A stretch of 64,000 nt of DNA from Xiphophorus maculatus (taxonomy: Eukaryota > Chordata > Actinopteri > Cyprinodontiformes > Poeciliidae). The position numbers and the translations under genes were made by a program. Under the pieces are notes generated by a model that had not been told where the DNA came from, ran no database searches, and saw nothing but the letters and a program-made list of their open reading frames with translations. Below are positions 9,592 to 33,448 of this stretch, piece after piece. Numbering within the stretch: the stretch's first letter is position 1; the number at the start of each line of letters is the position of its first letter. The stretch is from contig NC_036460.1 of the NCBI RefSeq assembly GCF_002775205.1, positions 21,780,751 to 21,844,750 of the forward strand, read 5' to 3'.

Positions 9592-9599
9592 AATAAATT

Positions 9600-10550: not shown

Positions 10551-10556
10551 ATCAAA

Positions 10557-10905
10557 ACTATCCATCCATTTTCTAACACCCTCGTCCTAAGTGGGGTCGT
10601 AAGGAGTGCTGGTGCCTATCTCCAGCGAACGTTTTGGGCGAAAGGCGGGGTCACCCTGGACAGGTCGCCAGTCTGTCGCAGGGCAACACAGAGACAGATA
10701 GGGAAAAACAACCATGCACACACACACACTCACACCTAGGGAGAATTTTTAGAAACCAATTAAAAGCTGGAGTACCCGGAGAGAACCCATGCATGCACAG
10801 GAAGAACATGCAAACACCATGCAGAAAGAACCCAGGCTGGGAATCAAACCCAGGACCTTCTTCCTGCAAGGCAACAGTGCTACCAACTGCGCCACTGTGC
10901 AGCCT
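10557..10905 (-). mobile_element. tRNA-derived SINE
   Basis: On the minus strand the head carries a polymerase III A box (TGGCGCAGTTGG) and a B box (GGTTTGATTCC) in tRNA-like spacing. The body contains 'CCAGGGTGACCCCGCCTTTCGCCC'-type sequence in reverse, and the far end reads ATCCATCCATTTTCTAACAC on the plus strand. This is a very common teleost interspersed repeat. It lies just beyond the 3' end of the large minus-strand gene. A shorter, worn relative is at about 16590-16680. Confidence 0.8.
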
Positions 10906-11220
10906 GGTACCTAAAACAAATAAAATGCAAAGAAAAAAAGTCCAGCAAAATTGTCATTTTGGTCTGGCTGCTTTTTATTCACTTGAATTGAGGATCCTGC
11001 CTTTCAGAACCAAGTATGCGTTTTTTTGTTGTTTTTTTTTATCTTAAAAGCTTAGGTTCCTGGTTGCACAAAAGAGAAGAAATTATATAATCATTGACAT
11101 AAATTTTAATTTAATGTGTTAAACTTTTAAATGTAGTTTGGGGGTGGGGGAGTCATTTTTACACAAAACTCAAAACCTGAAAGTTTTGAGTTTTATCTGA
11201 TAGTGATAGGAATCAAACCT

Positions 11221-11339: not shown

Positions 11340-12460
11340 TCAGCCACTCTGGTCCTCCTGTCCCTCTTTGGCTTCAGAGCTTCTCTCTCTCAGAAATCCT
11401 CCAAGATGTGATAACAGAGATGCTTCTCTGTGCTTCACCAGCATTTTCTCTACCTCCTGGTAGGACACAAATCAGCAAACACACAACACATGGAAGAAAC
11501 TGGTTAGACTTAAAAGTCTGTAAATCCACATTTAGACTGCCAGTAAGCAGATTATCAGATCTGAACAGAAAAGCAAAAGTAGAGCCACATACTATGCCTT
11601 TAGGTTCATACAGAGAGGGAATTTCCAGTTCTTACATCTTCAGACAGTAGTCCTCTGCTTGGTTTATGAAGCCTATGTAGCAGTGAGACAACATGGGGCT
11701 CTGACAGCGCCTCCTTTAGGTCACCCTGCTCCTGAAACCCAACACACAAACTTGGTTCCAGTCCAGAACGGATGCTCAGTCTGGCCTGAAAGAGCTCTTG
11801 CAAACAATCCTGTAGAGTCTGGCAGGAAGTGAACAAAAAAAATAAATTAGACAAATGCTCCTTTGAAAGCACTTACAACTTCAACCTTCAGTTATATAGC
11901 ATTTAAAATGCAGGCGTTATTTAGATTTCTTCAAATCTTATAGATTTTCATTCACCTTGAAGAAAAGTCTCTGGAAGGCTGGACTAAAGTCGGCGCTCAT
12001 GTCATTGGTTTTAATGTGTGAGAGACAGTGAAGGAGCATGAGAGAGAACCCACCGACACACTGCAGCCTCTGACGGCGGATAAAGAGTATCTCCTCTGCT
12101 TCCTGAGCATATGCAAAATAAAGTTAGTCATGAATCACTTAAACATCTTGCAGATGGACTAAAACACAACATGCATGACCCATTACTAAAATAATTTCAG
12201 CAGACTGCATTTTGTTATGTTTAAAATATGGATTTGATGAATTACATTAACTGTATTATGTCAGTCAGAAAACTTTAAGGTCTGCAGCCCTTGTTTGTCT
12301 AAGACTGGAGCAGTTTGAACTTTGAAGCTGATTCTGAAACTAACCAGAGACCACAACCTGGGTCAATGAAAATTACAGTTCCACCACAGGTTTTATTTAC
12401 AAGAAATCAAGAAATCTGCTTTGGTTTGGCCTTATTATTTCAGCTCTCTGTTCCCGCAAC

Positions 12461-12530
<70 letters not shown>

Positions 12531-15500
12531 CTAAAGAACTGAAAAAAGTTGAGCAAGTGCTGTTTTATTCCAGTTTTAATACCAATTTTGTGAAATATTA
12601 GCAATAAGGCTATTTTTCTTAAAACAATTTTGATGAGATGAGTTTGCTGGCAATCCAGCACAGTAACACCATGTGGTCACTGACTCATCACAGACTGTGT
12701 AAACTTCACTCTGAAGTTTAGGCAGCATAGATTGTGTCCCCCCTCCTCTCTTTCTACAGACTTTGGGACCTTGATTTCCAATTTAAATGCAAATTCAACT
12801 TTCATCTGAAAAGAGGACTTGGAACCACAGAGCAACAATCTTGTTCTATTTCTCCTTTTGTCCAAATAGTTTTTGATGCAGTGTCTCCAACCTTTTGCTT
12901 GACAATCATCTCAAGGCTATGGCCATCCTGGCTAATGGTGAACCTTTTCCAACCACAATTTGTCCTTCCACTCAACTTTCTATGACAATCACTCCTGCTG
13001 CATTCTACAGCATTCTGTGAACAGGCAGCTTCTTTAGCATCGACATTCTATGGGTTACTCTCCTCGTGGAGGCTGCTGCTGAGTGTTTTCTTTACAGTGT
13101 GTCTGTCAAATGAGCTGTCTTCCTCCTGATGGATTAGCCTACTCACCCAGACTAAGAGATCATTTAATCACAGGTGTCAAACTCCAGTCCTCGAGGGCCG
13201 CAGTCCTGCAGTTTTTAGATGTGCCACAGATACAAAATGCTGGAATGAAATGACTTAATTACCTCCTCCTTGTGTAGATCAGTTCTCCAGAGCCTTGCTA
13301 ATGACTTAATTATTCTGTTCAGGTGTGGTGCAGCAGAGGCACATCTAAAAGTTGCAGGACAGCAGCCCTCGAGGCCTGGAGTTTGACCCCCCTTAGAGGC
13401 TCAGGAAACTTGTCCATGTGTCAGTGAATTGGATGATTAGAGTGACACCCTGAGTGTCCAATCATGAGCAGCTGCATTTTGGGATATCATTATCGGTAAG
13501 CCATAATAGTTATAATAAAGACTTGACATACTTCACTCAATGTCTAGCAACTCAGGGTAATGAGTTTTACTTTCTGAAATGTAACTTTTTAATTTTTTAT
13601 GACTAACAGATTTTTAATTTTTTGAGACTAATTGATTTTTTATTTAAAGTGAAGGGGCAGAGTGTTTCCTCAGAAGAATAAGAAGTTCAGTTCTTAACAT
13701 GGGGCTACAGTAAAAAGATGCAAAACAACTGGACGTAATTCTGGTTTGTTTACCTTTTTTCAGTTGTCACCTGCGTAAATGTGTTACATACAGCTAGGAG
13801 AGATTGCTCTTTAGATCAAGATGGCTGTGTGGAAATCGAAAGTCTTTGAGACGTAGTCTGAGGTTGAAAGAGAAAGTTGTGTTTTGGAGACATTTCAAGT
13901 ATAGACGCTGTAGCTACGTGATCTATTGGGGTGTAATTTTGTTGAAGGCAAGAGAAGAAGGTGTTGGTGTAAAGGAGACCCAGCTTTGATAACTTTAGCA
14001 ATAAATAAAGCGCACAGTGAATTCTATTAAAACCATTTATTTTTCCAAACCATGGGACAATGTTTAGTAAATTGTGTAGTTTAAGAATTTTTTTTTAAAC
14101 TAGAGTGATGATGCTGGTCCAGTCAGGAAGCAGCAAAATTATTATAACTGTATAAGTAACTTGAAAATAAATCTTGGCATATATACCGTCATAAAGCAGT
14201 ACTTTACCTGATAAAAGAAAGAGTTCCTGAAGGCGTTGTTTACATAGTTGTTGTTTGGCAGGCTCACAGCTATCTGAAGTGAAACAGCTGGAGTCTGTAA
14301 CAAAGGAAGAAAAACTCTAAGGTATTTTCATTTATCTGAAGTTTTATGGAAACCAGCAAGGTAAACGTCCCTTTCACTAGTTGCACTTTGAAAGGACATA
14401 GACAAAACTTATTAATAGAATATTCTATGATTTTCTCACAGCATAAATCTTTAAAAAAAAAAGCTAAATATCAACAATTGTGTTTCAATGCTTATTAATT
14501 CATGATTCCTGTCAAAGTGAAACCTGAGCACCAACCAGTTTTAGATTATGCAGCATGTCAATCAGGAATAATCCATGCTGGTAGACCAGGAACTCTCTGG
14601 GGTTTAGGACTGAAAGGTCCAAAGGGATCAGCTCTCCTTCGCATTCCCACTGGGCATCCAGGACATCCACAAAACCGTTTTCTCTGTCTAGATAAAGTAT
14701 GAGATTACTCAAAATTAAATTATATAAATTGTGTTCTTTTTTTTTCTCCTCCAGATGGTAGTTTGACTCCTTGCAGTAGTGGACACCAACTAAAACAGAA
14801 GGTATTTGTACATTTGACCAAACATCTCCAGTGTTCATGGATGAAAATTTCTGAACTCACTACTAAGTTCTTGTCCAAGTAAACCAGCCTTCCCAGCCCA
14901 GGCCTTCAGCCGCAGTTCCAAATCCCTTAAAAACCGGAAGAGAGGAGAGACCTCCACCAGCCTCTTCCACTGCTCCTCTGAGGGGCACAAATAAGTTCAT
15001 GAGATGTCTATTCCATAAATGCATCCTTGTTTTGATGTTAGTAAATGTACAGTTTTGGACTAAAGTCCTAATAAGACTTATATTATAAGGAATACCTGGA
15101 GTAGTAGTGACGGCTGTATGTGTAGACTGAGCAGGGTCCTTTGTCTGCTGACTCTCTGTAAAGAAACCAAGACCATCATGTGGATAGATCCTGGGCTTAG
15201 GTAGACGTGCATGACAGAAAAAACACAAACAGCAAAAATCTGAGCGTAGATAAATTTAGTAACCCTAAAGCTGTGACAGACGACTCTTTAGATCACATTT
15301 AGGCTGGAACTGAGGTGAGGACAGTATTTGGAAAATATAATTTGAAAGTTGGAGATGAGCTTATGTCACTTAAAACGGTCGAGGGCTTTTCCAAGGCCAT
15401 AATCAGAAAAATTGTAAAATAACTCACAACTACACAGCATTTATTTACACTTGAAAGTCCTAAAATATAAAGTCAGGTGCACCTAATGAGAAATTCATTA

Positions 15501-18500
15501 CTTTAAAGGAATTTTGCTCTTTTTAGACATCAGACATTTAATTTGAAGTGATCCTAACTGTGGAAGTGAGAGTGGAAGCATTAAAACAGCTTTAAAACGC
15601 CTTTAGAAAGGAAACTCTAGCGGCATCTGAGTCTTGTAAGGGGCTTAGAAATGTCTCAAGATTATTTCAAATGGGCCATTCCAATGTTTTGAATGACCTC
15701 CACTTGTAGACTATGTTCCAGACATCTGCTGATATGTCCAGGTCTGGCCATTCAAGCAAGCTCACCCTTAAGACAGGCTGCTTTAAGTAACTTATTTACC
15801 ATAAGTATTAAAGTGTTATATTCTGAGAAGTGAAAATCATTTTTGTCACATCTTATATGAATTTTGATTTAGATTAGCTTGATGCTGTTAAAACCTGTCG
15901 CTTTTGGAGTTTCTTTCCATCCCTTTGGGCTTTGTGTTTCTATGTTGGTTTGCAATTCTGGTTATTTTAGTCTTTGCTCATGTTCTGTCATTGATTGTCA
16001 TCTGTTCTGTGTTTCCTGGTTCACTCAGAATTTTTACTCAGCGCCTCGACCCCCCGTCCTCCGTCAGTCGTCGATGAACAACTCACATTAACCTTCAATC
16101 ATGAGAAAGGCACAAATACACAATACACTTCTGTTTTGGCAGCTGAAACTTAAAGAGAGGAAGGTTTCATGCTGCTTCTAACCATTGTTCACTGTACAGC
16201 CTGAATTCTGAGTTTTTTGTATGCTACCGCTTTCTGGAACAGACTGAACAGCAGCTAACCACATTTTGCTTCACCACATGTTATAAGAACCACGTACATC
16301 TACCATTTACAGAAAGAACTACTACAGAGTGCACAGCATTTCCCACAGGAGAGTTAGATGAGGGCGGTTGTTAAATCTCACCCTGCGAGTGAACACCAGA
16401 CGATGCAGTCTGTCCTTGTGAGCAGGTCCGGAGGATGCCGTCCTGGGTTTCAGCAACATTTACAGGTTCTCTCAGATACTGGGTTGAGTTCCCTTTTGAC
16501 ACATAAGGGAGACATTTACTCTGCTTTAAACAAGTGAGGAATCAATTTAAGGGATTCACTGCAAATAAGAGACATGGATGTTGAATTCAGGGTGTTTGGT
16601 GCCTATCTCCAATGAGCGTGATGAGTGAGAGACAGGGTGAAACCTGGACTTTAGTCCATCAAGAATCACACCTAATGTTTGTGTGTTAGTATTACTTTTA
16701 AATGTTAACACTGAGATTTCTTTATCGTTCACAAACTTTGTTTGAATGTTATTTTCTATCGGCAGGGCAAATTGGGCCATTTAGATAGAAAAGTGGTATA
16801 GTAAACACTACGTATCGTCACTGAAAGTACTTTGCCATGTTCTAACATCTAAAAATTATTTACTTATATTTGTGTCTGATTGTATTACCTTTAAATGTTA
16901 CATCTGATGTTCTGTCTAGTTATTCAATACTTGATCAGTCTTTATATGAAATACTTTTTTATTCTTAATTGAGTAATTTCTTGGACAGCTATTTTTTAAC
17001 TTTTGTTGACGTGGTGATGTCCTACTTGGATACAGTTTTTGGATACTCTAACCATCTCCAGTTTTAAATAATTTATGTCTTATGGCATAATGTCTTCCAA
17101 CAACCCTCAAGTGACAGATTCACACGCAGTAATGTGACAGGGTTTAGTAAGAGAGGAGTAACAAGAAGAAAACATATTCAAAATCAAAAGGCAAATAGAA
17201 TAATTTTAAAAAAAGTCTGCAAAACAGAAAAAAATGCTTATTTTGGGGGGGAAATAATTGTAATTTGCAGTACAGAATTCTGTGTACTCTATTTAAAACT
17301 ATACTCACGAATAATGCAGATGAAAGTGTCCAAATGTGGGTTTTTACTGATGTCTAAATGTTCAAAGGTTGGGACTTTTAATGTCTTTCTTTTGGTTAAA
17401 TGAGGAAAGGATTTTTTTTTATCAGTGTAACCTTCTGGCCTGCATAAAGGCGAAGACTGACATAACTGAAACACCTGGATGTCCGGTAATTTCTGGGAAG
17501 AGAGTGATAATAAAGCTAACTGGAAGTTGCTGAGATCTGTTTACAAAACAAACTGATGTAACTGAATTTTTCCACTTCCTTATATCAGATCCTTCCTTTG
17601 ATCTGCTCTGAGGAAACCGCAGAGCTGTGCAACCTCAGCACACAACCTCAGTCTGAATTACATTCTCAACAATGTGAAACGGTTTGAGCATACTTTTAGC
17701 CAGCTGATAGGGCATTGTTATGCAGCAGACTCCAACATTTAGAGAGTAAAATTAATTGACGTGAAAGTTAATTTCACATGGGCTCCTGTGCTACACATGA
17801 GGTTTGACAGACTGAGTGCATTCAAGTTCTCAAAAAATACTGAACCTGTTCTCAGGGCCACGGTCAGGTCTACAGAGCGAATCATAAGGTTGACCTTCCA
17901 GCAAACAGGGACTTGAACAGATCTAGGGTCCGGAAAATGGGAGCAAAAATCTCAGCTGACCCCACACATCCTGGATCCACATTGTTTAGACTCAGGTCAG
18001 CACAACAGAGAGCTGATTAGAAAAACACCCATCAATGAGGTTGTTTCTTCACCCCAGGCTGTCTCTCTGATGAACACCTAACAATTCCAGATTGCCCACA
18101 TAGATACTGTACATAGTTCCACAAATTGTCTTGTAAATTGTTTATTTGTCATGTATTTATACTATTTTACATAGTTTTATTCTTTTAGAAAGGCCCGTTT
18201 CCTTTTTGATCGCAAACAAATCTCTTGGTTGAATGAAAATCAACCTACAACGAGCATGAATAGGTTCGGGCCTAACTATATCTAACAAAGAACATACCTT
18301 TCACCACTGGAACAGAGGTTGTCCACACTCTGGATGGGATCTCCAAGCAAAACTCCTGCTTTCTTGACAAGCCTAAGACATGCCAGAAAACAGACTTTCA
18401 CAGTAAACAACCTGTAAACCTTTTCTTTGTCCTCAGTAATTCCACGAGTAAAGACCAGCACTGGTGTTTTTAATGTGAGATATGTGATGATGCAGTTGAT

Positions 18501-21500
18501 TAATGCTCCTCTACCGGAGATTTGCTGGTTGCACATGTTGGAGAACAGGTCTGTTGAAGGTTTTTCTTCCAGGATCACACTCAATCTTTCAAGCAGAGGA
18601 ACAACCCTCTGTTGGAGCAGAGCCATCATGGTGATGTTTGACTTATATTCACTACATTGGACCAGGCCATAGTCTTTGAACCAAAACTGTCCACCAAGTA
18701 CTGCCTAAACAGCCACACAGAAAATGGGAACGTTACAAGAGTTAACAATTGAAGTTGCACCTCAGTGATGATTAATTGCATCTACAGAGATGCAATTAAT
18801 CCATCTCTGTATGTGATGTGTTACATACAATATTTAGCTTTTTAAAAACATATATCCATTTGTAGATAACATGTCTTGTAAATCTTATAAGGTCTTCTGT
18901 GTTTTCACCTGGGCTGTGTTGGCACGCAGCCGAGAAACAAGTCTGACAAAATGGAGCGACGTGAGAGCAGAATCCACCGCTGTCTGTGTGGAACAACACT
19001 GCTCCCTCAATTCTCTGTGCCTGAGCTCTCTGTCCTGAAAACCCAATGATTTTATACTGTTACTATCTTATGGTCAAAAGTGCTATTGTTGAGAACAAAC
19101 CTAGACTTGCTGAAGCATTTTTTAAAATAACTATTTCAGGCCAAAAAAAAGCCCCCGCCGTGATGTCAGAAATAAGCCTAGAAACAATTGTTCTTACCAT
19201 CGCATGGAGGTTTGTAAACCAGTCTCCTGGCTGGGACGTCCATTTCTCATTGTCTTGTTGCAGCTGATCCATGCACACATCCAGCTTATCAAGGCCAGAC
19301 ATAAGGGCTGAGTGCCAACCACACTGCTGGTCCCATTCCTCTTCATCGCCTACAATCAGCCATGAATATTCATACCTTATTGTGCTGCAATGCAAATAAA
19401 ACACTGCAAAGTGGCATTATGCTTAATCCGGCATCTTGGAAGTGATATTACCGCACGTAAGGATAGGTAAGATATGTGGGGGCAGGACCAGAGCCAAGAA
19501 TGAGTGCTGAGCTGCTCTTCTCTGGACCTCAGTTTGTGCAGTATCCTGCAGCTCGACAGCTGCCTCTTTCAACTGCTTCCCTGACCACCGCACCTACAGG
19601 AATATACAAACTATTCATTCAAGCTCGAATAAAGCATACAGACACACACACACACATCCTCTTGCAAAGCTCAAAGAGCAAAGATGCCGTTAAAAAAAAT
19701 ATTTCATCTGTTTTTATTTCTACACATTCAAAAGCTTGAAAAGTCTTGAATTGCTTCCTCTATGAATGCACAAAGCTCTTCTTTAAAAACAGCATAAAAA
19801 CTCTCCCTGCTGACCTGATGAGAATTTGCATCTGTGACACTGGAGAGATGCTGGCATAAAGCTGAGTCCAGATCGATGAGGATGTCTTCCTCACGCTGCC
19901 TCTGCTGCTGCCAGTAAGAGTTTCTCACACACATTTCTCTCTGCAGCGCCTCCACCTGACACAGAACAGAAAAAAAATAATAAACTGAGCAAGATCCAGC
20001 TCAGTTATCTGCCTTATTCCTACATGAAATATCATCCACGTGTCTTCATTTACTACATTATAACTTTTGATTTAGGGATTTGTGCACCTACTTGCACACC
20101 ATCAGTTTGCTCTGTCATCATCAGCCAGAATGAAGATGTCATAGGCACAATGTTTTTGCTGGGCACATCCAACCTTGCTCCAACTACTGGGGCCAACAGC
20201 CCAGTCACTGGATCCACAGCCTGAGCTCCATAACGGATCGCCACCAAGCCTGTCAGGTGCAAGCACATGCTTGACTCACTGATACAAATATCTTGCATTA
20301 TTCTAAAATGAATAAAATGAAGAATTGCAGGTTCTTGTTATTATCAACATGCCTTTTCCTTTTGGGTCCTCCATGGTTCCTGCCAGAGGAATTGCATTTC
20401 CAGAGACAGGATCCCTCTGGCACCCAAGCACAGGAACACTCAGACCAGATCCCATAGGGTCAAGATACTCCATCCCCAAGAGAGCTGGCAGACACATATC
20501 TGAAGCTGGCAGAGGCATTTCGCCTGATTCATACCACAAATATGAGTAAATTAAATAAACTTAATTAAAAATAAAGATCATATAAAATCAGGTAACATAA
20601 GGCAGAACAAGATTCTTACTAAAAAGAAAGACTACCAGTACAATCAGACATTGTTGTTTTCTTAGCCTCAGACGCTTGCTAATGGCATTATAGAACTTTA
20701 CATCAACCTTAAAAAGCAGATCTAGCACAAAATAAGTAAAGATGTTTTTTGTTCTACATGGTATTTCAAGTCATTTCTCCATTAAAATGAAAACTAATAG
20801 TGTAAAGGTTAAATTTAGGCTTATAAGAGAAACTGGTCACATGCTTAGTTCTATAAAGGGTAGCTGTCTGTGATATGTAAAGGTCAAGTGAAAAGACTTT
20901 GGGTTAGGAAATGTGTGTTCCTCTTAGGCTACTGACTTTCTTAAATGTCAGAAGTAAAAAAATAAAGACGCTTTTGTCTGCACATGTGTGCTCACTGCTC
21001 ATTGGCCGGCTCTGTCTCAGTTTCAAAACAAATATGGTGGATAAGTTGAGTGTTCCACTTTCACCGAGACAGCTTATGAAGGCTGCCACTTTCATAGGCC
21101 AAAGTGGCAGCCTCACTTCTATCAGACTGTCCCAGATGGGTGTTTTTTCATGAGGATTCCTTACCCAGTGTCCCACCATCCTGCTGCAGATGCAGAGTCC
21201 AGTCCAGCAGCATCTCAAACCTGGTCCACAGCTGCAGCCCACAGTGCAGACTCCTTTCCCAGGCCTGCTCAAGCTCCTTGCTTGCAGCTAGAAGATCAAC
21301 CAGTCGACCGCTTATATTCTCGTTGCCTGGATGGCTCTGCATATTTTGTAGAGTCGGGTCTGAACCCCAGTCATCAGTTAGCGGTTTCAGGAGGTCCAGT
21401 GTTTTAAGCATCTCAGCCAGAACCTGAACCAAATAAACATCTCTGTCACTCAGGTAATGTATTATAGAATAGAATAGAATAGAATAGAATAGAATAGAAT

Positions 21501-24500
21501 AGAATAGAATAGAATAGAATAGAATTACTTTATTCATCCCAGCAGGGAAATTATTTCGCAGTTACAGCAGCATAGAGACAAGACATGCTGCTGTAATTGC
21601 TTTACGAAGCAACTTTGCAAATTTACAGTTTTAGCGTTGCTGGTTTACTCTCAAAGTCTGTGGTTGTATTATTTATTACACGTTTCATAAAACATAGCTC
21701 ACCAGGAAATGAGAAGGGAAAACTAGACACTTTCCTCACAGCTTGGTAGTTTCCTGTACTGGTATCGTGAAAAGTATTGAACATCAAGTCATATTTTTAC
21801 TGGAGTTGGAGTTAATCAAGCACCTTGTTGTCTAATAATGCTTGATATCCTCCTGCATGAGGCACCAGCTGTCCGGCCCTGATGGTGACTCCTCCTACTC
21901 TCACCATCTGCCCACTCAGAGGTTCGGTGAAGACCTCACCGAGTAGCGCTCCACCTACTGGTTGTACATCTCCTACAGGACAAGCAGAGTAAGTCCAAAT
22001 GACAAAAGAGCTGTAATTTATGTATTAACAGACATCTAGCAACACTCACCTGTTACCAGATCTAAATGGACCCCAACAGTGAGCACAATGTTCCCTGTCC
22101 TGGAGTCCAGCATGGGATAACCAATTTGTATTGGCTGAAGCAGGCGGGAGAGTGGGCAGGTATGCAGCCTTCCCAGGGGGTAAACTAATCCAGTCTGTGG
22201 GTGGATAGTTACTGCCAGGGTGGGTACGGGAATGCCTGTGTCTGGATCTGCCACGGGCATGCCCAATTTTAACCTATGACCTGGTTTCAGGCCTTTGAGA
22301 CGAATGCAAGGCAGGGGCAGCTCTGAGGGGCAGGAGGTGGGAAAAGGAAGAAATGGAAGGAGGGGACGGTCCAACTTTCTGATATCACCTGATGCAATGA
22401 AAAGCACACAAGATATTTTTTTCACATTACAATCGAGGAAGACAGTTTATTCAACTGGTGAACTGAAAGGAAAATGGTTTCAAATTGTTTAATGAGTAAA
22501 AGTCAGAAAAATTTGACATACCTCTGTATTTACTCCCAGCAGTCAAAACGTTTTAGAACCACAGTTAATTATTTTACAATTAGCCTCCATCTGTTTTGCA
22601 CATCTGTATACTGAATTTTTTACCCCTTGTTCTTTGCAATAAAGCTTGAGCTTACGCACACTGGATAAAGGGAGCATATGTGATTATAATTTTTAAGTAA
22701 TGCCTTGATTTAATGACTGTCTTAATTACTTTTTGCCACTGTTCTAGGAGTAATGTCACTTCAGTTCAGTTTATTGCATTTATATAAAGCTAATACACAA
22801 ATATCATCTCAAGGCACTATTACATACAAAAAAACCTATTGTATATACAGAAACATAAAGCCAAATCATTCCAATAACATGAACAAATTATAAGTCAATG
22901 ACATACATTCCAATTCCATCCTAGCTCACAATACTGTCACATCCAGATTATTATGCCAACTGGTAAAAACTAACTCACTGAGTAAGTGACCTTGCAGCAA
23001 TCCCTGCTACTGAACAAGCAGGTGGCGATAGTGGGCAGCTGATGACATTAAGTTGTGAAATCCCTTGTAATGTGTTTGTAGGGAGCATGTTGTTTTACCT
23101 AAATCCTTCCAAAACTTCTCCATTAATGTTATCCCTGACCTGCCTGCTATGTTCCTTGGTCTTTCTGCAGTCTGTTCTCTATCTCTAAAAACCTCTAAAC
23201 ATTCACAGAACAGCAGTATTAATATTGTAGACATACACTCAAATGGACTCTATTAATGATGTATCTCCTGAAGGATTCAATTTCACATTCATTTCATTTC
23301 ACAAGTATTAACATTAATGGAAATGTCCAGCCACCCCACCACTGAAGAAGTTTTGTGTCCCAGAGTGTCATGATTTGCGGTGAAGGTGGTGAGGCAGATG
23401 AGGCAGACGCAGGTTGAAATGAAGAAACTTATGATTTTAATGATGAAGTCAGCGATACAAAATCCAAAGTCCAGGCAGCACAGAATGAGCAGAAGGCTAA
23501 TAGTTCACAACTGGTAGAGCAAAAGACAACGAGAGCAAACAAGACAGCTAGAGAAGTACCCACCAAAGTACAAGGAACACAGGTGGGTTTAAATACACAG
23601 GGAGACAATCAGAGGAAACAAGGAGCAGGTGTAACTAATCAAGTGGTAGATGGGACAGACTCCACAGAACACAGGAATCTAAATAAACACACAGAAAAAC
23701 TCAAATCCTCACACAGAGATGAATATATGATGGTGTGCAATGTGTGTATCAACCTCCAAAAAAAAGCACAAGAACTTCTGAAAATGCTGGCTGAAGGTGG
23801 TAAGAGAGCGTCATTATCGCCAGTAAAATGGGCCATGTATTTACATGGGCTAAAATTGCTAAAAAACAGGCAATTACTCCAATTACTTAGAAAACAGCCA
23901 GACTCCAGCTTGCAAAGGCACTGAAGGACAAAACACCTATTTGTTAGAGGCATGTCCTGGGCTTTAATGAAATTGAAATTGAAGTATTTGATCATAGTGA
24001 CCATCACAGAGAAAGCCTGAGAAAGCCATCCCAGATGTTGCTGCAAAAGAGACTGGTACACTTCACAAAATAGATGGCATCCTGGGGAAAGAACATTTCA
24101 TGTATATATTGAAGCAACATTTCAAATCTTTAGCCAAGAGGTTCAATCTTGGCTGAAGAAACTTGGGTAGAGTTGGGTTTTCCTAATAGTCAATGTGTTA
24201 AAAAGTGGTTTAAGAACAACAAAGTCAATGTTCTGGAGTTGTCTTCAAAAACACTGATCCGGGTCTCATAGAAAATGAGTGGGCAGGGCTGAAAATGTTG
24301 AAAGGTTTCCAGCAAACTATTGGGTGAAGCTTGTGGAAGAACACCCAGAAGATTTGACCCAAGTCATACGGTTTAAAAGCCAATTCTACCAAATACTGAA
24401 CCATTCACATTGTATTTTAACTTCAAAATCTAAAAAATAAAAGAGTTACTTAGCTATCTATCAACATAGTTATTTACGTATTTAGTAAGCTAAAATCATT

Positions 24501-27500
24501 GAGGTAATTCTTTTCTGACCCAAAACAGGAAAATTTAGTCTGATTTATTGTCAGGCATTGGAAAGAAACACCTGGTAACCTGTTTACTTCACTACATGTC
24601 ATATATTTTCAATTATTTCATCGTTTTACATTTGTATGTAATTGTTTCATTATAAAACACCTCAATATAAAGGATTTTTATGTACCTTTAGGATGCATAA
24701 TTGTTGCTGAGTTTATTTTTATTACCAGCAGTAGATCCTTCCTCTTTGCAACTGTAAGACATTACTGTATAGCCATATCTGCTCCAAACAAACCCATTAA
24801 GCCCTAACAGCTTTGCTGTAACTGACACATCCCTGTTTGCTCAGCTTGTAAATAGTCTGTCGTTTTATATGTGCACATTTATTGATGCACATTTTGTACA
24901 TTTTCCTTCTCTAAAGACTAATCTACTCAGTTGCACATTACTTTCAGTTTGAGTATGCAATTTCTTTGAATACCTGTACAGCATCATTTTTATTGTAAAT
25001 GTTTGCTTACCTTACCGTCCATTATTCTTATTTTTGTGATTTTTACCTTTGTGTGAGTATGCATGTCCCACTTACCTTAACTTGCTGCTGTGACACCTGA
25101 ATTACCTCTATATTTCTATTGTATTTAGTATTCTCTCTGTCTTACACATGGCGTTTTATTTCATCACTATATGTGTGGTAGGATAGAACCGGCAGTGTTA
25201 CCTGTACAGAGGTCCGTAGTAAACACTAATGTAGAACTGACAGGATCATAGGCCACATTGCCAACGATGGGTAAAACTCTGCCAGTCTGTGGGTGAATGA
25301 AATAATCAGGTGGCACTGCCATGGTGTGACCGCTGCTCAGCAACATGTGGCTTTGAGAGTTTGGCTTTATGAGCCCGGTGACTGGATCACAATGAACTGC
25401 AGCAGGGACACGCAGAGACCCGTCAGGACCTGAGAGGAGGCAGAGGTTGGACATTTTTTAAATCTTTATCTAAAAATCCTGATAATACTACAAATTAACA
25501 AATCTAACTTGTAAAAAGGTATTTTGGAATAAAAAAGGGATTTATTTAAATAATTTTCCTTCTTGATAGAGGCTATATGTTTTTGCAATTTTTTATTCAT
25601 TTTTTAAAGTTTTGTTTTCTTTGTTGCAGCACAAGTTTTTAGCAGTAGATGGTGCTGTTTCTCCAACATTCAAGAAGTCCTTCATAGTATCGTAGTACTA
25701 CACAGAAACTACTGAAGATTTTTTTTCTTCTTTTTCAGGGCTTATTGACTCACCAAAGATGTCGTCTTTGGTCAGGACGGTTCCCGTGTCGGGACAGAGC
25801 AGCTTGGCCCCGGTACCTTCACCCAACAGTCCCCACGCTCCCTGACGGTGGCACTCTGCTGCCACCAGCTCCCCCATTTCATCCACAAGGCACGTCAGCT
25901 TTTGGGTCAAACTTAACATTGATGGAAAACATATTTAAAAGTTCATAGTATTTATTTCAGATCTCTTTGATCCATTTGACTCTTTAGAATAATACTTGAC
26001 AAATCTTTTACATTTGTTGGTGAAGCTCACAAGAGGCCTGATTGTTGTTGGAAATCTTGGACAGCAGTCTGGTGCACTCTCTGCATCGAGTCGTGAATAC
26101 ACTGTAGACCCGCTGCTTGGCCTGCTGATCTTGTCTCAAAACCTAGAAGGAACCAGTTACATCTATTTCAGTTATCCTTTTGGGAAGGTTGATCATTTTA
26201 GTTGTTTGTTTCTAAGATTTACAGTGTTTGGCATTTCTTTGCTGCCTGTTAAACTGTCAGAGAGGATGTATTATTAAATGCACCTTGTTCTTGATTATTT
26301 CAGTTTAATTACCTTGGCAGAGAAGCACCACAAAATTCAAGGAACAAGCATGTTTAGTTAGATTTATCAATCTGACAAACCTTTATTTATGATTTTACTT
26401 TGCCTTAAAAATGTATTCATACTTGTCAATGTTCAGTTTCAGTTCTACAGCTAAAATCTTCAAGATATTTTTGGAGATTTTATGTGATGGGGGAAAAAAA
26501 CTGTGGTAAAGGGTGAATCTTTTAACAGTCAAAAACCAAATGGAGCCCAATTTAGTCTGACTCCTCGCTGCCACCCCAAAAAATTAATAAATTCATAACA
26601 AATCACTTTTGCAGTTGGTCAAAAACCATGCCGGGTCAAATCAAACAGGTGGAAGATGGCGTTCTGGTCAGATGACACTACAATATGTCTGGTGAAAAAT
26701 TAAATATGGAATCCAAACATAAAGCCAGAGTTACAATGGACTGTTTTAGATACACTCATTGTGTAGATGGCCCAGTCAACATCCAGATCAAAATACATTT
26801 GAGGACCTACAGCAAGATTTAACGTTGGTATTTACAGATGGTCTCCATCCAAACTGAGATCAAAAGACCAATTTTATTGTAGTCTAAATGTGCCAAACTG
26901 TCAGAGATTTTAACCTCAAATACTAAAGTAGTAGCAAATGTTGCAGCTCAGAGGTGCATATTAAATCTGGAGGCGCTACAGCAAACACGGTACATTAATT
27001 ATATTTCCTCACAATTATAATCCCACTAAAACATATTGAAATTTATAATCCTAACACGAGAATATGTGGAAAAGATCAGAATGTAAGAGCACTGCATAAT
27101 GAGACTTGTATAGTACCTCAAGCTGATTGTCAAGCAAAGTTCGCAGCTGGGAGGCCAAAGACCTCCGCCGCCCCACTTCTTTCTCCATCTCTTTTCTCAT
27201 CCTCTCATAACCTTCCCCCACCCTCTCCTCGGCAATCATGCCTGGGTGGAGTAGTTGTAGTTTCCCAAGGACTCCCTGATACATCTCTTTTACCTGGACA
27301 AACACAAAAACACATTAGGAACAAAATCATCATAAAACTGTTGTAATCTGAGCCTACAATCATGCAGCCTTAGCAAACATCTCCAATCCTCAGGAGACAT
27401 AAGCATTTATGCAGCATCATCTCTTCTTACATCTTTATCACTACACTTCTTCGGGGCTGTAACACTAATCTGTTCTCTAAGCTGCATCCAACCAATTAAA

Positions 27501-30500
27501 TAGGAAGGACACAGGACAAAGAGTAGTGCACATAAGAAAACAGAGATTTTCGTAAGTGATATTTAGCCTGTTTAAATGAACCTGAATGATCTCTGAAATA
27601 TGAGGAGGGACAGCAGATAGTGAAAGAGAAGCTGTGCCCAATCTTTCAGGGCTTTTATAAAATCAAATTAGAGGTCAAGAAGTGAATGTAAAGATGTACT
27701 TCATTAGAATGTTCTTTAATTTTTTATGAGAAGACTCCAGCCTCAGGGCTAAGCTAAAAAAAAAAGTTAATTAAATTAATTCCACAAGAAATTACTGAAA
27801 ATTTACTTTGTAAAGTTTTTTCTCACATCAAACTCCAAGACAAAAAAAATCACCAACAATATTCCCGGTTACTAAAAGAAATATATTTAATACATAAATT
27901 GGCAAATTAATAAGAGACAAAGTCCCAAGTGGATTTGTTGTTGCTGAACAGTTCTGCTTCACTGAAGCAACAGTGTGTGAAGGATAAAAGAGGGAATTAG
28001 TGTCAGTTCTCTTGTTGCCAGTTTACTTTGCGAATAATCCGGAGGTTTCTACCTCTGTTGTGAGCTGCCCCAGCCTGGTAGTGACAGACAGGCTTTGTTT
28101 AAGCAGGAGGCTGTAGAAAGTGTTGCTGCTGAAAGCCTCCAAATCCACCTGGTGCTCATAATCCCAAAACTCATCCAAAACATCCGGGCAGGCTGCTTTT
28201 CACAAAGACAGTACAAAACAGGGAGAAATAGGGATAAAAAACTTGAATAAATGTATTTCAGATCACATCAGAAAATTATTTTTGTAGTACATGTACTACA
28301 AAAGCAAATACTTTCAGGAAAAGTATTTACATTAATTAAGGTTTTCGTGACATTGCAACAATAAACTGTAATATAGTGTTTCAGGGTATTTCAACCTATT
28401 TTATTGAGTGAATGTGAAAAATAGAAAATCACTACATATTTGGAGAAATGCGTGGAATTCTTAATTCCTGTATTTAGCCCCTCAGATCACAACTTTATTG
28501 AACTACCTTTTGTCACATTTACATCTGAGAGACTTTTGGTGTAAGTCTTTACCAACTTTGGACACTGGGAGATATTTATTTTTCTCCCCTTCTTTCAGAA
28601 ATAGCTCAAGCTGAATCATACCATCAATTCTTTCTTTTTATAGCTAGCTGTAAATGTCACCCTTCTATTACCACCAGTGTATGTTCCTAGTTCACAATTT
28701 GTCATAATCATTTGTTGATCTATTTCATTGAGTTTCTGTAAGTTTGTGGCTGGTGTGTTAAATAACATGGACAAATTTAAGGTCTGCAAATACTTTTACA
28801 AGGGCCCTTGTAATAAGCTGCATTAAAAGTTCATTAAAAGCTGTTGTTCGTGTGTGTGTGTTTTGGAACATCTACTCCGATGTAAAGTTCTGCTTGGTTC
28901 TTCGTAGTAATGACATCAAAAGCTGTACAATAGTAAACTGAGGAAAGGGCCCCATTGATAAGATGCTTGTTTTCCTTTTTGCTGTTGGTCACCATACACG
29001 TGCCATCAGCTTCGTGACGTCAGTCTTTTTAACAGTAACTGGTCGGATGGGCGCACCACCCAAAGGTCAGTGTCAGTGTTGCGTAAGAAGTCACTGGGGT
29101 CTTCAAAGGCCCAGTGTTTGGACAGAACGTGAGGTCGGTGCACGTTGCAGGTGCATTTGTCTAAAGTTGCCTATCACATTTGAATGTAAGTTGGGAAACA
29201 AATGATCTCCAAGGCTTCTAAGGAATGAGTAAATAATTGGAGTATTCCACCTGGCTGAATGGAGTCCTTCATTAGCCTAGCTTGTTGATTCCGATGGGTC
29301 TTCCTAATTGTGAAAACTCTTGAGCCTTTTGATGCATAGTCATCCATTTGATAGGCCAGCTGCAACGAACGATACCTCGTTGTGATTGGCTTCTTTTCCG
29401 GCCACCCATATTCCTGGAACATAATCTACATACACAAAAAACACAAATGTTTTAAAGTTACTTTATAAGATTAGTGAACATCTGAAATGCTTGTGTGCCT
29501 AAAAAGACGAACCAGCAATGCAACACATAAGCAGAGAACAACCACAGCTCCTAACAACAGTCCGCCGGCGACCAGCCAATCAGGTCGAAGCAACAGATCA
29601 CGTCTTCTGCTGATTCCCATTTGGGTCAGATGTCGAGGAATGGTTGGGAAGAAGGGTCCAGGCTCATAACACTGGCCCCCTGCAGGCATCACTCGCACAT
29701 ACTGAAAGGCATTGGCATCCGTAGTTAGTGACACTTTACCATTTATAGCTTATGTCACAAATTGCATTAGCCATCTGCTAACTTTTTTTATGTGTTGTTC
29801 TTAGTATTGATCATAACATCCTTAGACAATTCAATCCAAACATAAACGAGATTAAAAAAATAGAGTCAAAACAGCAAAAAATAATATATCAGCCATTGAA
29901 ATTATATGTTTTTATAATCATTTAAAAAAAAAAAATTACGATGTAACAAAGTAGCTTTGATTTTTTAATTGAAATTTACCATGTGCTTATGCTGATTGCT
30001 GCTAAGTGTGAAGACGTAAACCCCCTGGTGGCTAAAGACCAGCGAAAATAAGGTAGGAGGAGTCCAGGAAAGGGCCAGCTCCTCTTCCAGCAGCCTGAGC
30101 GCACCCCAGTCAAAATCACTGTTTGTGTTGTAGAGATTGTCACTGAAACAAGTGCAGAGATGATGAACAAAAATGTCAAAACAAAAGTAGCAAAATGCTC
30201 AAACCTGGAAGAATTCACCATGTGACTTACATGTCATAGAGCGGGTAATGTCGTGTGCTGACGGTGAACAGTAAAACATCCCCCAGTTGGAGACATGTTG
30301 TTGGATTGAGGACTCCAGTTATACTCAACACGCTGTGATCTGCAACATCACTCAGGTCTTTGTTCCACTGTCTGAAATTAGGTTCTCTTTTTGCATCACT
30401 GATATTTTCCACACCGCTGATCTCATCTAAAACTTCATAGTTTTCGTCTGTAAATCAGTCATGCAGAACAACAATCTCAATAACGCAATAATTCAGTTTG

Positions 30501-33448
30501 CAGGTGTTGACCATTTCCGTGCGTTCATTGTTATTTCGATTGGTGTGCAGCAGTGACAAACCGGCTGAGCTCTGTGTGCGGTCTGGAAACAGTTGCTGAA
30601 TTTCCTCTGGGAGACCGCTGAGGAGGCCAAAGAGTCCTGCCTCTAGCAGTCGTGATACAGATGAAGAAGAAAAAGGAGGTCATGAGTGTGACAGGGAACC
30701 ACAAAAGAAATCAGCTGCTGGATAGAAAAACCCTATTGTGTATGTGTCTGTGATTGTTTGAAAGTGCGTCTCCACCTGTTGTCTGAACAATGTAGACAGG
30801 ACGTGAGGGTTTGTGATGGCTGTGACACTGCAGAGTCCCCTGGGCATCCCACCTTTCAAAAACCGTTTCTAGCACACTGCCTGAGACGCTTGACACCTGC
30901 AGGCACACAATGACAATCTTTACCATTAATAGGTCAATGCAACACAAGAGATGAGGCTGCAGTTTCACAATGAAGATGACAATACATGCCTGTATGCATT
31001 ATCGAAACAGGCTTAATTGTCTATTGTGTTTTATTCAATAGAAATACAACATGAATATGAGTGTAACAATTGGGGGAAAAAACATTGAATACTTAAAATA
31101 TAAGATAATATTCAGTCTTTTGGTACATTTTATCAGTACGGATGTTAATCTATTGTCCACCTGACTTTCATGGCTCCATGTCAGAGCCATATCCTGATTA
31201 TATCTGCACTGGAGCTTCAGATGTGTAGCTGGCTTCTGCCTGCATAGGCCTCCACATGCAGCTCTGCCAGGAGGCTCTCTGCACACACACAGACCCAGCT
31301 CCCTGTCATAACCACGGTAGTCCTCTGGTGTTTGGCACACCTGCAGAAAAACAGCCAATGCAACTCTTGTGACATGTACGTTTTCTAATTAATTCCTCTG
31401 AATCAACACAACTATGAAATCATTGCTGAGCAAAAGTCACAGGAAGCAGTTTATGGTTAAATATTAATTGGGTTTATGAAGCTTGGAGGCTTGTCAGGTT
31501 CATGGGGTAAAGGGCAAAGACATCCAGGTTGTGCTCATTCCCCTCAGTGATTGTGGGCTGTGTGCTTACTCGATACGTTCTTTAAACAGGTCATAGTTGT
31601 TGCATATCTTCTGTATGAGTTTCCTGTCTCATATCATTGTGAACAAGATAAACCAAAGACCTTTCCCCTGGTTTTTCCTTAGTGTATGTGAAGGGCCATA
31701 TCGTAAGTGCAAGCATTTACCTTATCCTTGCAGTGAAGAGACCACTGGTGCTGGTCCAAGCAGTCCCCATATTGTGTGCGAGACTTTCCATTTCTGCAGA
31801 TGCTGTACAGCTGTTGCACACACATTTCTCCATCACTGCTGGGCTGGTATCCGATTGTACAGAAGCAACGACCATTAGTTCTCTATGGAAATAAAAGGAG
31901 AAATAAAAGGTCTAAGACATGATATGTGATTGGTTGAAATGACAAAGACAAAGATTTAATCCAAAGACAAAAACATAATATTTTCAACTATAGCAACTTC
32001 CGTTATTTATCAGGTTATTCACTTATGGTTTCTGCTCTTTTTCTCTTCCTTAGGGGTGCTGCTGGGATGCTACTAACAACTAAGCATTTATCCAATCTCT
32101 CTGAGTACCCGATTTGAGCGTTTGCCTACAAACTGCGTGCAACACATGAGCTGTATGTTCAAACCTGTAACGCTCCACAAAGTTTTGTCTCCCTGGGGAA
32201 TGTAGAAGATTGTCAGACTGAGAACACAGCAGGAAATTCTTTCTGCTTCTCCAGTGTTGCCATAGACACAGCTCTTGACTGCCCCAGTAGACTAGTTTCC
32301 GTCTTTCTTTCTATTTTTGTTTCAGTTTTTTAACCTCGCAGTAGTCTTGTATTTTTTCTATTGAATGCTGTTTTCACATTGTTGTTTATAAATATTGCTG
32401 TGGAATTGATTTTTGCACTCTTCCCTTGATTTATACCTTTGTACAACAAAATTCATTTGTTCTATCATATCTCTGGCCAAAGGTTGCAAGTGTGTAAGCT
32501 TATTTATATATCATAAATATAACAATAATATAATAAAGGAGAAGAAAGATTTAAAAGGATTTATAAAGGTTTTCTATCTTGCGTCAGAAAACTCACATTT
32601 AACAGAGATGTTTGCAATCTCTGATCCACTTTAAGTACACAGTAAGTCCTCAATTTCTAAGGTTTTGCGACCATATTTCTACACACAAGTGTTGTCCCAC
32701 AGACAACCAGGGCCAAATCTCATTCCCTTGATCCTGAGCTGATGAGAAGAGAGGTCAACACCTATGCAACTGCAGCCACATGGGGAAACTAGATCCTTCT
32801 GTAAAGTAATACTATCTGGAACTCCCTTGGCTTGAAGCTACAGATTGTTTATCGTCTAATATTTCTGAGTGACAGTCAGGAAGCTACTCCTTTCACTGTA
32901 TTTGTGAAGAAAGAGCAACAAGACGAAAAAGAAACCATAAGCACACTTGGAGCAGATGCTTCTTCACTCTGTAGGAATTGCTGTGCTGATCTTTATGCCC
33001 TGTAAAAACACCTGAACAACAAACATGGGAAGAAACACCTGAAAACTCTGTCCATTTCCTGAGCAAATACAAACATCCTGGCCAGACAAAGGCTGCACAG
33101 CCATAGGACCACAGGCCAGGGGGGAGAGCAGGCCTGGTCGAGGGCAGTAGTGTTGTGGAGGACACTTTAGGCAGCTTTCTTGGGACACAGCTCCAGCATT
33201 TGGCCCATATGTGCCTCTAGGACAGGGGACCGGACTGAAGCTGGCTGGAGGACAGTAGAAACCTAATATGTGCAAAAACATGTCAATCTGTCTTACGTTT
33301 TGATGTTGCAGTCATAAGAAAATAAAATCTGTTGGAAAAGCTTACCTGGCTGGCAATTCAGATTTTCCTTGTTTTGTTGACTGATGTTTCTCTCTTGGGC
33401 CATTGCACTCAGCAGCACTGCAAAATGCCAAACCACATCCATCTCCAT
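11340..33448 (-). CDS. Large multi-domain type I membrane protein, unrecognised (34 coding exons, ~1843 aa)
   Basis: Assembled by hand; all phases agree and the total is 5532 bp. Exons: 33346-33448, 33039-33262, 31721-31882, 31161-31340, 30776-30896, 30562-30642, 30231-30447, 29980-30142, 29480-29701, 29251-29425, 28053-28195, 27117-27293, 26012-26142, 25754-25911, 25202-25429, 22050-22388, 21824-21972, 21165-21423, 20349-20523, 20092-20302, 19815-19955, 19452-19593, 19198-19349, 18909-19034, 18515-18704, 18298-18372, 16382-16492, 15096-15155, 14861-14977, 14524-14789, 14208-14294, 11956-12102, 11636-11818, 11340-11456. Signal peptide (about 1-17), Cys-rich ectodomain, cupredoxin-like domain (about 336-425), membrane span (about 460-481), coiled coil, DPxTG repeats, helical C-terminus. 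Start at 33448; a second ATG is two codons in. Weak donors: exons 6, 9 and 30. I do not recognise the gene; some exon may be missed (see 29009-29160). Confidence 0.8.
12463..12528. repeat. Poly-A plus (AT)n microsatellite
   Basis: A 19-base A run followed by about 24 AT units, in an intron of the large gene. Confidence 0.95.
13171..13393. mobile_element. Short inverted-repeat element (hAT-like MITE)
   Basis: The left end reads CAGGTGTCAAACTCCAGTCC followed by TCGAGGGCCGCAGTCCTGCA. The right end, reverse-complemented, repeats it with few changes (GGTCAAACTCCAGGCCTCGAGGGCTGC). About 220 bp long with no coding capacity. It is a familiar fish non-autonomous DNA element; the exact class is inferred, as I could not see a clear 8-bp target duplication. 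Confidence 0.7.
16560..16690. repeat. Worn SINE relative
   Basis: The phrase 'GGTGCCTATCTCCAATGAGCG ... GAGAGACAGGGTGAAACCTGGAC' is a mutated version of the corresponding part of the SINE at 10557-10905. It lies in an intron of the large gene. Confidence 0.5.
17820..18200 (+). repeat. Probable retroelement 3' remnant
   Basis: Contains the coding-like end 'NEVVSSPQAVSLMNT' followed by a stop, then AT-rich sequence with TACTGTACATAG and 'TTGTAAATTGTTTATTTGTC', a layout seen at the 3' end of several fish LINE-like elements. It lies between exons 26 and 27 of the large gene. Class unresolved. Confidence 0.35.
18770..18801. repeat. Hairpin with 14-bp perfect arms
   Basis: Arms 18770-18783 and 18788-18801 with a 4-base loop, in the intron between exons 24 and 25 of the large gene. 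Confidence 0.85.
21466..21525. repeat. (AGAAT)12 microsatellite
   Basis: Twelve perfect pentamer units, starting about 43 bp upstream (in gene sense) of the acceptor of exon 18 of the large gene. The sequence just beyond ('TACTTTATTCATCCCAGCAG') is a typical fish LINE 3' end, so the microsatellite is probably the tail of a retroposon copy that reaches about 21600. Confidence 0.9.
22755..22960. repeat. Interspersed repeat fragment
   Basis: Starts 'AGTTCAGTTTATTGCATTTATATAAAG' and continues with 'CATCTCAAGGCACTATTAC', a very common fish repeat signature (TTTATTTATATAGCGCC ... CTCAAGGCGCTT type). No coding capacity. Confidence 0.55.
23366..23713 (-). mobile_element. Solo LTR with 5-bp target duplication
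   Basis: The element reads TGTCATGATT at the left and ends CTCACA at the right, i.e. TGTGAG...TGACA in its own sense (minus). It is flanked on both sides by the 5-bp direct repeat CAGAG (23361-23365 and 23714-23718). It resembles the LTRs at 34141-34501 and 45592-45940, including the 'GGAACACAGG(T/A)GGG(T/A)TTAAATACACA' block. No internal region is present, so it arose by LTR-LTR recombination. It lies in the large intron between exons 15 and 16. Confidence 0.85.
23740..24435 (+). mobile_element. Decayed Tc1-like transposon
   Basis: Nucleotide text such as 'CCTGGGCTTTAATGAAATTGAAATTG', 'TGACCATCACAGAGAAAGCC', 'AGTGGTTTAAGAACAACAAAGTCAATG', 'CATAGAAAATGAGTGGGCAGGGCTGAAA' and 'AGCTTGTGGAAGAACACCCAGA' matches the teleost Tc1-family transposase C-terminal half (region around the final acidic residue: IENxWAGLK). 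Many stops and indels; inactive. Confidence 0.65.
24440..25140. other. Intronic sequence without other features
   Basis: Rest of the intron between exons 15 and 16 of the large gene; AT-rich, no exon-like segment found on either strand. Confidence 0.4.
26430..26960. repeat. Tc1-like repeat remnant
   Basis: Contains 'TGGTCAAAAACCATGCCG'-like and 'AGATGGCGTTCTGGTCAGATGACACTA' and 'GATGGCCCAGTCAACATCCAGATC ... GATGGTCTCCATCC', typical worn text of fish Tc1/mariner copies (the last phrase derives from the transposase 'PSQSPDLNP' region). In an intron of the large gene. Confidence 0.6.
28280..28303. repeat. Perfect 24-bp palindrome
   Basis: TTTTGTAGTACATGTACTAC plus AAAA equals its own reverse complement with no spacer; intronic. 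Confidence 0.9.
29009..29160 (-). other. Possible extra exon of the large gene
   Basis: An acceptor (CAACTTTAG) at 29161-29162 is followed by an open frame in the phase expected after exon 10 (G|AC). It reads 'DKCTCNVHRPHVLSKHWAFE', 'DPSDFLRNTDTDLWVVRPSDQ'-like protein text of normal composition up to a stop at 29006-29008. No good donor returns to the phase that exon 11 needs (only a poor A|GTGACT), so it was left out of the main model. It could be a real exon joined to a further small exon, an alternative 3' end, or a decayed exon. Confidence 0.4.
29480..30447 (-). other. Cupredoxin-like domain and transmembrane segment of the large gene
   Basis: Exons 7-9. Residues about 336-425 read 'TTCLQLGDVLLFTVSTRHYP', 'LYDIDNLYNTNSDFDWGA', then 'SLVFSHQGVYVFTLSSNQHK' and 'HMYVRVMPAG'. 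The 'GD-x-hydrophobic', the aromatic strand and a final 'GVYxF...HxxMxVxV' resemble a blue-copper (plastocyanin-like) fold, with His357, His401, His414, His416 and Met417 near the usual ligand places but no Cys ligand. Exon 9 continues through 'GGQCYEPGPFFPT' to 'SRRRDLLLRP' and a 22-residue hydrophobic stretch starting 'LVAGGLLLGAVVVL' (about 460-481). The domain call is inference from fold-like spacing. Confidence 0.5.
31161..33262 (-). other. Ectodomain of the large gene: GCC2/GCC3-like and EGF-like Cys-rich exons
   Basis: Exon 2 (33039-33262) reads 'QPGFYCPPASFSPVPCPRGT' then 'CLKCPPQHYCPRPG' and 'GQDVCIC', the pattern of GCC2/GCC3 (ephrin-receptor-like) Cys-rich repeats in secreted and surface proteins. 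Exon 3 (31721-31882) begins 'RTNGRCFCTIGYQPSSDGEM' and looks EGF-like; exon 2 to exon 3 joins as 'GNGQSFQ|RTNGRC' in phase 0. Exon 4 (31161-31340) contains 'YDRELGLCVCREPP' and 'ACGGLCRQKP'. The even spread of Cys and the signal peptide in exon 1 support a disulfide-bonded extracellular region of about 190 residues. Confidence 0.7.

What the first reader, a model, noticed from the sequence alone, without database searches (positions are those of the whole stretch)
11340..33448. An unrecognised ~1843-residue single-pass membrane protein encoded by 34 exons
Seen: 34 exons with consistent phases give one 5532-bp frame. The product has a signal peptide, Cys-rich modules, a cupredoxin-like domain, one membrane span and about 1360 residues on the presumed cytoplasmic side. 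That side has a coiled coil, repeated DPxTG hairpin-like units and a long helical C-terminus. Knowledge: I recall no named vertebrate receptor with this order of parts. Inference: a large receptor or scaffold linking an extracellular ligand or metal site to an intracellular repeat assembly.
Basis: partly seen in the sequence, partly recalled or inferred. Interest (0 to 1): 0.85.

Follow-up and report, generated by a model that had tools for sequence, protein, structure and literature searches.

The report
Uncharacterised fish membrane protein gene
A fish chromosome carries a convincing gene of about 34 exons for a large, probably single-pass membrane protein with an unusual 15-residue repeat; it matches no protein family at the accepted cut-offs in the catalogues searched, so its function is open.

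Summary
My curated model has 34 exons and 1,774 residues, not 1,843; 30 of 34 exons recur in a relaxed 35-exon chain.

Present: 22 cysteines up front, one clear membrane span, a heptad-like stretch, and 15-16-residue DPxTG repeats beyond shuffles. Ephrin_rec_like matches only below cut-off (E 0.0026). The cupredoxin-like domain has no support. The repeats are not plectin repeats. No paralogue was found in the 704-Mb genome, with 26 of 54 candidates scored.

A split into two genes is disfavoured but not excluded: charged no cost, it scores slightly higher. No vertebrate collection was available, so 'unrecognised' and distribution could not be tested. Type I topology and a membrane-anchored scaffold role are inference.

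The parts
33346..33448 (-). exon 1, start codon, signal-peptide-like MEMDVVWHFAVLLSAMA|QE
   Evidence: donor score 7.1; signal peptide judged by eye, no predictor run
33039..33262 (-). exon 2, Cys-rich, weakly Ephrin_rec_like; acceptor 33262 or 33244, donor 33039 or 33012
31721..31882 (-). exon 3, Cys-rich
31161..31340 (-). exon 4, Cys-rich
30776..30896 (-). exon 5
30562..30642 (-). exon 6 (phase 1-1, weak donor; could be skipped in frame)
   Evidence: absent from the chain
   Evidence: cupredoxin not supported (23, 24, 78)
29513..29701 (-). exon 9, membrane span (residues about 457-481); weak donor, open to a stop at 29471
   Evidence: absent from the chain
29251..29425 (-). exon 10, juxtamembrane
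28053..28192 (-). exon 11, coiled-coil-like; weak acceptor
27117..27293 (-). exon 12, coiled-coil-like; weak donor
26012..26142 (-). exon 13, coiled-coil-like; weak donor, TAA just beyond
25754..25911 (-). exon 14; weak acceptor
25202..25429 (-). exon 15, DPxTG units
22050..22388 (-). exon 16, DPxTG units
21824..21972 (-). exon 17, DPxTG-like units
21165..21423 (-). exon 18, spacer between the two repeat blocks
20353..20523 (-). exon 19, second DPxTG block; GC donor
20092..20249 (-). exon 20, second DPxTG block
19815..19955 (-). exon 21, C-terminal helical-looking part
19452..19593 (-). exon 22
19198..19349 (-). exon 23
18909..19034 (-). exon 24
18515..18704 (-). exon 25 (may instead run on to 18298)
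   Evidence: alternative
18298..18372 (-). exon 26, uncertain
   Evidence: only
16382..16492 (-). exon 27 (acceptor 16492 or 16523); optional 18-nt exon 17492-17475 before it
15096..15155 (-). exon 28
14861..14977 (-). exon 29
14536..14687 (-). exon 30, weak donor
14208..14294 (-). exon 31
11956..12102 (-). exon 32
11636..11818 (-). exon 33
11340..11456 (-). exon 34 with stop codon
11221..11226 (-). AATAAA, possible poly(A) signal 114-119 nt past the stop
   Evidence: such hexamers occur 1.5 per kb in the window, so weak

Best explanation
One protein-coding gene encodes a type I single-pass membrane protein of about 1,770-1,850 residues. Outside the cell lies a disulphide-rich head (22 Cys) resembling the Ephrin_rec_like kind of module, followed by a roughly 200-residue region of unknown fold. 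Inside lie a coiled-coil-like segment, two blocks of 15-16-residue hairpin-like units (DPxTG turn) and a long helical-looking C-terminus. I think it works as an oligomeric, membrane-anchored scaffold: the head binds a partner outside, the coiled coil brings copies together, and the hairpin blocks form an extended beta platform that holds cytosolic partners. Shown: the exon chain, the single span, the cysteines, the repeats and the helix-like periodicity of residues 539-720. Inferred: one transcript, topology, oligomerisation, binding and scaffold role.
For: One strong hydrophobic span, residues about 457-481. 22 Cys in residues 1-263; Ephrin_rec_like E 0.0026 when that part is scanned alone, below its cut-off. 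Hydrophobic 3.4-3.7-residue periodicity in residues 539-720, 0 of 300 shuffles as strong. DPx[TS]G 7 against a shuffle maximum of 2 in 2,000; best-lag self-similarity at lag 15 in residues 850-975 (10 of 500 shuffles as strong) and at lag 32 in residues 1075-1165 (4 of 500). AlphaFold on exon 16 pairs short strands on either side of the ADPDTG and HPQTG turns, block pLDDT 68-76.
Against: Ephrin_rec_like is E 4 in the whole protein. The AlphaFold models have mean pLDDT 55.1 and 51.2; no Foldseek match at E <= 0.001. The other helical-looking parts show weaker periodicity (10, 24 and 53 of 300 shuffles as strong). Basic residues flank the span on both sides. No orthologue, transcript or expression datum was available. 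Splice sites in exons 9-14 are weak, and two genes score slightly more when a second start and stop cost nothing.
Confidence: 0.45

Rival explanations
1. Two genes, head to tail: a membrane protein of exons 1-10 or 1-13 with a short or coiled-coil tail, and a separate soluble protein of exons 14-34 with the DPxTG blocks.
For: With no cost charged for a second start and stop, two chains score more than one: 306.8 against 279.6 (strict, cut at 26000; at least the 8 printed of 41 cut points exceeded 279.6) and 359.1 against 352.8 (relaxed; only cuts at 26000 and 29000 were tried). Exon 13 reads on to a TAA ending at 26008 and an in-frame ATG lies at 25919. My chain finder also joins exons of different genes elsewhere in the window.
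Against: The gain, 27 (strict) or 6 (relaxed), lies within what one chain in random sequence scores (strict setting: mean 19.8, max 36.5). Only 88 bases would separate stop and start, very short for two vertebrate genes (general knowledge). The relaxed single chain joins exons 10-14 with matching phases.
Confidence: 0.2
2. An ordinary, conserved vertebrate or fish gene, already in public annotation under a placeholder name, with a function that specialists in one tissue may know. This can be true together with the best explanation.
For: Intact, well-spliced genes of this size are usually old and annotated (general knowledge); no vertebrate database could be searched here.
Against: No Pfam family over its cut-off; no significant PDB chain; the papers listed by five domain, motif or locus searches (0, 9, 1, 0 and 2 papers) do not describe it, judged from titles and abstract starts only.
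Confidence: 0.5
3. The cytoplasmic part is a plakin-like repeat protein (plectin repeats also carry DPxTG-like turns, recalled).
For: Motif similarity only.
Against: PF00681 lists 138 matches in this genome (150 of 211 candidates scored), none on contig C18 where the window lies; hmmscan found none in the protein.
Confidence: 0.02

Closest known systems
Ephrin_rec_like Cys-rich module (PF07699)
   Same: Cys spacing of exon 2 (CPRGTY...CLKCPPQHYC); E 0.0026 with the N-terminal 263 aa
   Different: 18.0 bits against a cut-off of 23.1; one stretch only; E 4 in the whole protein, and no other Eph-receptor domain found by Pfam
Plectin repeat proteins (PF00681)
   Same: DPxTG-like turn (recalled)
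   Different: no match in the protein or on contig C18; spacing mostly 15-16 residues against a 39-position model
Cupredoxins (ephrin family PF00812 tested by profile)
   Same: a GDVLLF...HY and GVYVFTLSSNQHKHMYV pattern recalls cupredoxin strands (recalled)
   Different: no Pfam or PDB match; hhalign to nine ephrin exons below shuffles; no Cys at the usual copper-ligand place (recalled)

Membership tests
Ephrin_rec_like (PF07699) | profile score over the curated cut-off of 23.1 bits | tested here: not met
   18.0 bits for residues 46-78 with the N-terminal part alone, 7.7 bits in the whole protein; the genome search at E <= 0.001 lists 20 places, none on C18
Plectin repeat (PF00681) | profile match of the 39-position repeat | tested here: not met
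   no hit in hmmscan; 138 genome matches listed, none on C18 (150 of 211 candidates scored)
Cupredoxin / ephrin | sequence-profile match | tested here: not met
   0 Pfam families and 0 PDB chains at E <= 10 for residues 330-432; hhalign score 9.7 for residues 320-440, the ten best of 20 shuffles 12.1-16.7
Cupredoxin / ephrin | cupredoxin beta-sandwich fold | not testable with these tools
Single-pass membrane protein | exactly one hydrophobic span besides the start | tested here: met
   the 19 best 19-residue windows lie within residues 453-489; next best 1.38 at 1252; hydropathy only, no predictor
Type I topology | N-terminus outside | tested here: inconclusive
   signal-peptide-like start and Cys bias agree; basic residues flank both sides of the span
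Coiled-coil protein | helix-like hydrophobic periodicity | tested here: inconclusive
   residues 539-720, 0 of 300 shuffles as strong, but no dedicated coiled-coil predictor was run and lag self-similarity there is not unusual (218 of 500 shuffles)

The most novel reading that the evidence does not exclude
A previously undescribed, old vertebrate membrane-protein family, single copy in fish, with a new fold class on the cytosolic side: tandem 15-16-residue DPxTG hairpins forming a beta platform next to a coiled coil, and lost from or unrecognised in mammals.
Probability: 0.3. Interest if true: 0.65.

Novelty: new variant of a known kind. Interest (0 to 1): 0.42.

Why it matters
A gene of about 1,800 codons that no Pfam model covers at its cut-off is a gap in the domain catalogue. 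If the DPxTG units are a real repeat fold, a profile made from orthologues could label proteins in other animals, and a fish knockout would test a function directly. If the orthologues are already annotated under placeholder names, the value is that of naming a known unknown.

Tried and rejected
Plectin repeats: rejected. Cupredoxin by sequence: no support. PDB relatives: residues 1-1175, 5 matches at E <= 10, best 0.56; residues 1176-1774, none; repeat profile, 2 matches, best 0.15: all chance level. Other weak Pfam matches of the seven pieces scanned, all below their cut-offs and taken as chance: PI3K_P85_iSH2 0.025 and CPG4 0.065 (coiled-coil piece), SBDS_domain_II 0.071 and DUF6888 0.18 (repeats), DUF7905 0.11, NET2A_C 0.04. 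Foldseek of the exon-16 model: 89 matches at E <= 10 (50 printed), none <= 0.001. AlphaFold of exon 2 alone: mean pLDDT 51.2, not used. Paralogues: all 32 matches at E <= 1 lie in this gene, 26 of 54 first-look candidates scored; the repeat block alone finds only its own two exons at E <= 10. Bacterial and archaeal relatives of the repeat block: none of 139 pattern stretches confirmed. RFX X-box as a ciliary hint: 5 matches in the window at 1 mismatch, 3.9 expected. tRNA and Rfam: none. A 104-nt exon at 29160-29057: breaks the phase, left out. A 61-aa exon at 17492-17309: left out after exon 25/26 was split; this choice is not proven. Papers: 8 searches, which listed 0, 2, 9, 1, 0, 0, 2 and 0 papers, seen as titles and abstract starts; of PMC5900934 (listed) one passage was read.

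Full report
What was checked. The finding claims a minus-strand gene from 33448 down to 11340. I wrote a small gene finder (splice-site weights and fish codon usage recalled from memory, phase rule) and let it choose any ATG. On the minus strand it chose the ATG at 33448 and the stop at 11340, 28 exons, score 279.6. The same interval on the plus strand scored 33.7; 60 first-order Markov sequences scored 19.8 on average and 36.5 at most. Other parts of the window, plus/minus, scored 21.6/14.3 (1-11000), 220.4/181.6 (from 33500) and 100.1/79.7 (from 41600). The high ones contain other genes, and the minus chain of 181.6 joins ZP-gene exons with unrelated stretches. So a high score shows coding exons, not that they form one gene.

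The model. With laxer site limits the chain had 35 exons, 5,643 nt and a score of 352.8. My curated model has 34 exons, 5,325 nt and 1,774 residues, all phases consistent and one stop. Of its 34 exons 30 are identical to those of the 35-exon chain; exons 2, 25, 26 and 27 differ.

Weak places. Exon 2 can begin at 33262 or 33244 and end at 33039 or 33012. Site scores are below zero for the donors of exons 6, 9, 12, 19 (a GC donor), 25 and 30 and for the acceptors of exons 11 and 14. An open stretch at 29160-29057 looks coding but breaks the phase. Between 18515 and 16382 two readings compete: exons 25 and 26 with an intron between them, as in my model, or one 407-nt exon followed by others.

One gene or two. 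Two chains together score more than one, 306.8 against 279.6 (strict, best of 41 cut points; all 8 printed cuts exceeded 279.6) and 359.1 against 352.8 (relaxed, two cut points tried), when nothing is charged for the extra start and stop. The gain is within what one chain in random sequence scores under the strict setting. A split at exon 13/14 would leave 88 bases between a stop ending at 26008 and the next ATG at 25919, which is implausible for vertebrate neighbours (general knowledge). I put one gene at about 0.8.

What the protein looks like. The start MEMDVVWHFAVLLSAMA is signal-peptide-like by eye; no predictor was run. The first 263 residues hold 22 cysteines. Scanned alone they match Ephrin_rec_like at E 0.0026 and 18.0 bits, below the 23.1 cut-off; within the whole protein the match is E 4. 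The only strong hydrophobic span is at about residues 457-481. Residues 539-720 have a helix-like hydrophobic period stronger than all 300 shuffles; for residues 1176-1451, 1507-1774 and 980-1066 the numbers of shuffles at least as strong were 10, 24 and 53 of 300.

The repeats. Seven [DHE]Px[TS]G motifs occur, against a shuffle mean of 0.15 and a maximum of 2 in 2,000 shuffles. Self-similarity peaks at lag 15 in residues 850-975 (10 of 500 shuffles as strong) and at lag 32, twice 16, in residues 1075-1165 (4 of 500). An AlphaFold model of exon 16, aligned with four other repeat exons, has mean pLDDT 55.1, with ten-residue blocks of 68-76 over residues 31-70 and strands on either side of the ADPDTG and HPQTG turns. 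This agrees with hairpins but proves no fold; Foldseek found nothing at E <= 0.001.

What it is not. Plectin repeats: PF00681 lists 138 matches in this genome (150 of 211 candidates scored) and none on contig C18, where the window lies. Cupredoxin: no Pfam family and no PDB chain at E up to 10; hhalign against nine ephrin exons of the same genome scored 9.7, while the ten best of 20 shuffles scored 12.1 to 16.7. That is a weak test, because only one sequence stands on our side. A fold test of the stretch was not possible, because it spans exons 7-9. No PDB chain resembles residues 1-1175 (best E 0.56) or 1176-1774 significantly.

Copy number and surroundings. The window is G000:C18:21780751-21844750 of a 704,300,149-base genome in 101 contigs. 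All 32 places matching the protein at E <= 1 lie in this gene (26 of 54 first-look candidates were scored), and the repeat block alone finds only its own two exons at E <= 10 (3 of 3 scored). So no paralogue was found at this sensitivity. Neighbours: an apolipoprotein A1/A4/E-like frame at 37272-38147 + (E 1.6e-16, below the Pfam cut-off); a ZP-domain gene with exons at 41823-40544 - (ZP-C 2.9e-11, ZP-N 1.3e-6); a C-type lectin gene with exons from 52559 to 55321 + (Lectin_C 4.7e-17). A frame at 35-286 - resembles the start of TTC12 and one at 59431 + the start of SIK2; both names are recalled, and Pfam gave no match. A paper passage says that ANKK1 and TTC12 mark the place of DRD2 across jawed vertebrates (PMC5900934, one passage read). 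The assembly size suggests a livebearer such as Xiphophorus (recalled; the one paper search on it gave nothing).

Reading. Shown: a real, intact, many-exon coding region whose product has one membrane span, a Cys-rich head and an unusual short hairpin-like repeat, outside the Pfam families at their cut-offs. Inferred: one transcript, type I topology, oligomerisation through the coiled coil, and a scaffold role. Not testable here: orthologues, expression and selection, because no vertebrate sequences other than this genome could be searched.

Noticed in passing
41823-40544, minus strand: Exons of a ZP-domain gene (ZP-C E 2.9e-11, ZP-N E 1.3e-6), ZPLD1-like by recall.
   Followed up: partly
52559-55321, plus strand: C-type lectin gene with a membrane span, layilin-like by recall (Lectin_C E 4.7e-17).
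   Followed up: partly
37272-38147, plus strand: Large apolipoprotein A1/A4/E-like frame (E 1.6e-16, 61 bits, below the Pfam cut-off of 90).
   Followed up: partly
59431-59568, plus strand: First exon of a kinase, SIK2-like by recall; Pfam gave no match.
   Followed up: partly
35-286, minus strand: Frame resembling the start of TTC12 by recall; no Pfam match.
   Followed up: partly
29160-29057, minus strand: Open, coding-looking 104-nt stretch that breaks the reading phase of the gene; possible alternative exon.
   Followed up: partly
46827-47548: Nested direct and inverted repeats of 60-124 nt, mostly 83-91% alike, one copy 60%; probably a folded-back mobile element.
   Followed up: no
17778-18060: Intron stretch that reads like the tail of a LINE reverse transcriptase (recalled).
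   Followed up: no
51922-52206, minus strand: Reverse-transcriptase-like frame (recalled FEDDVVLLASS-type motif) upstream of the lectin gene.
   Followed up: no
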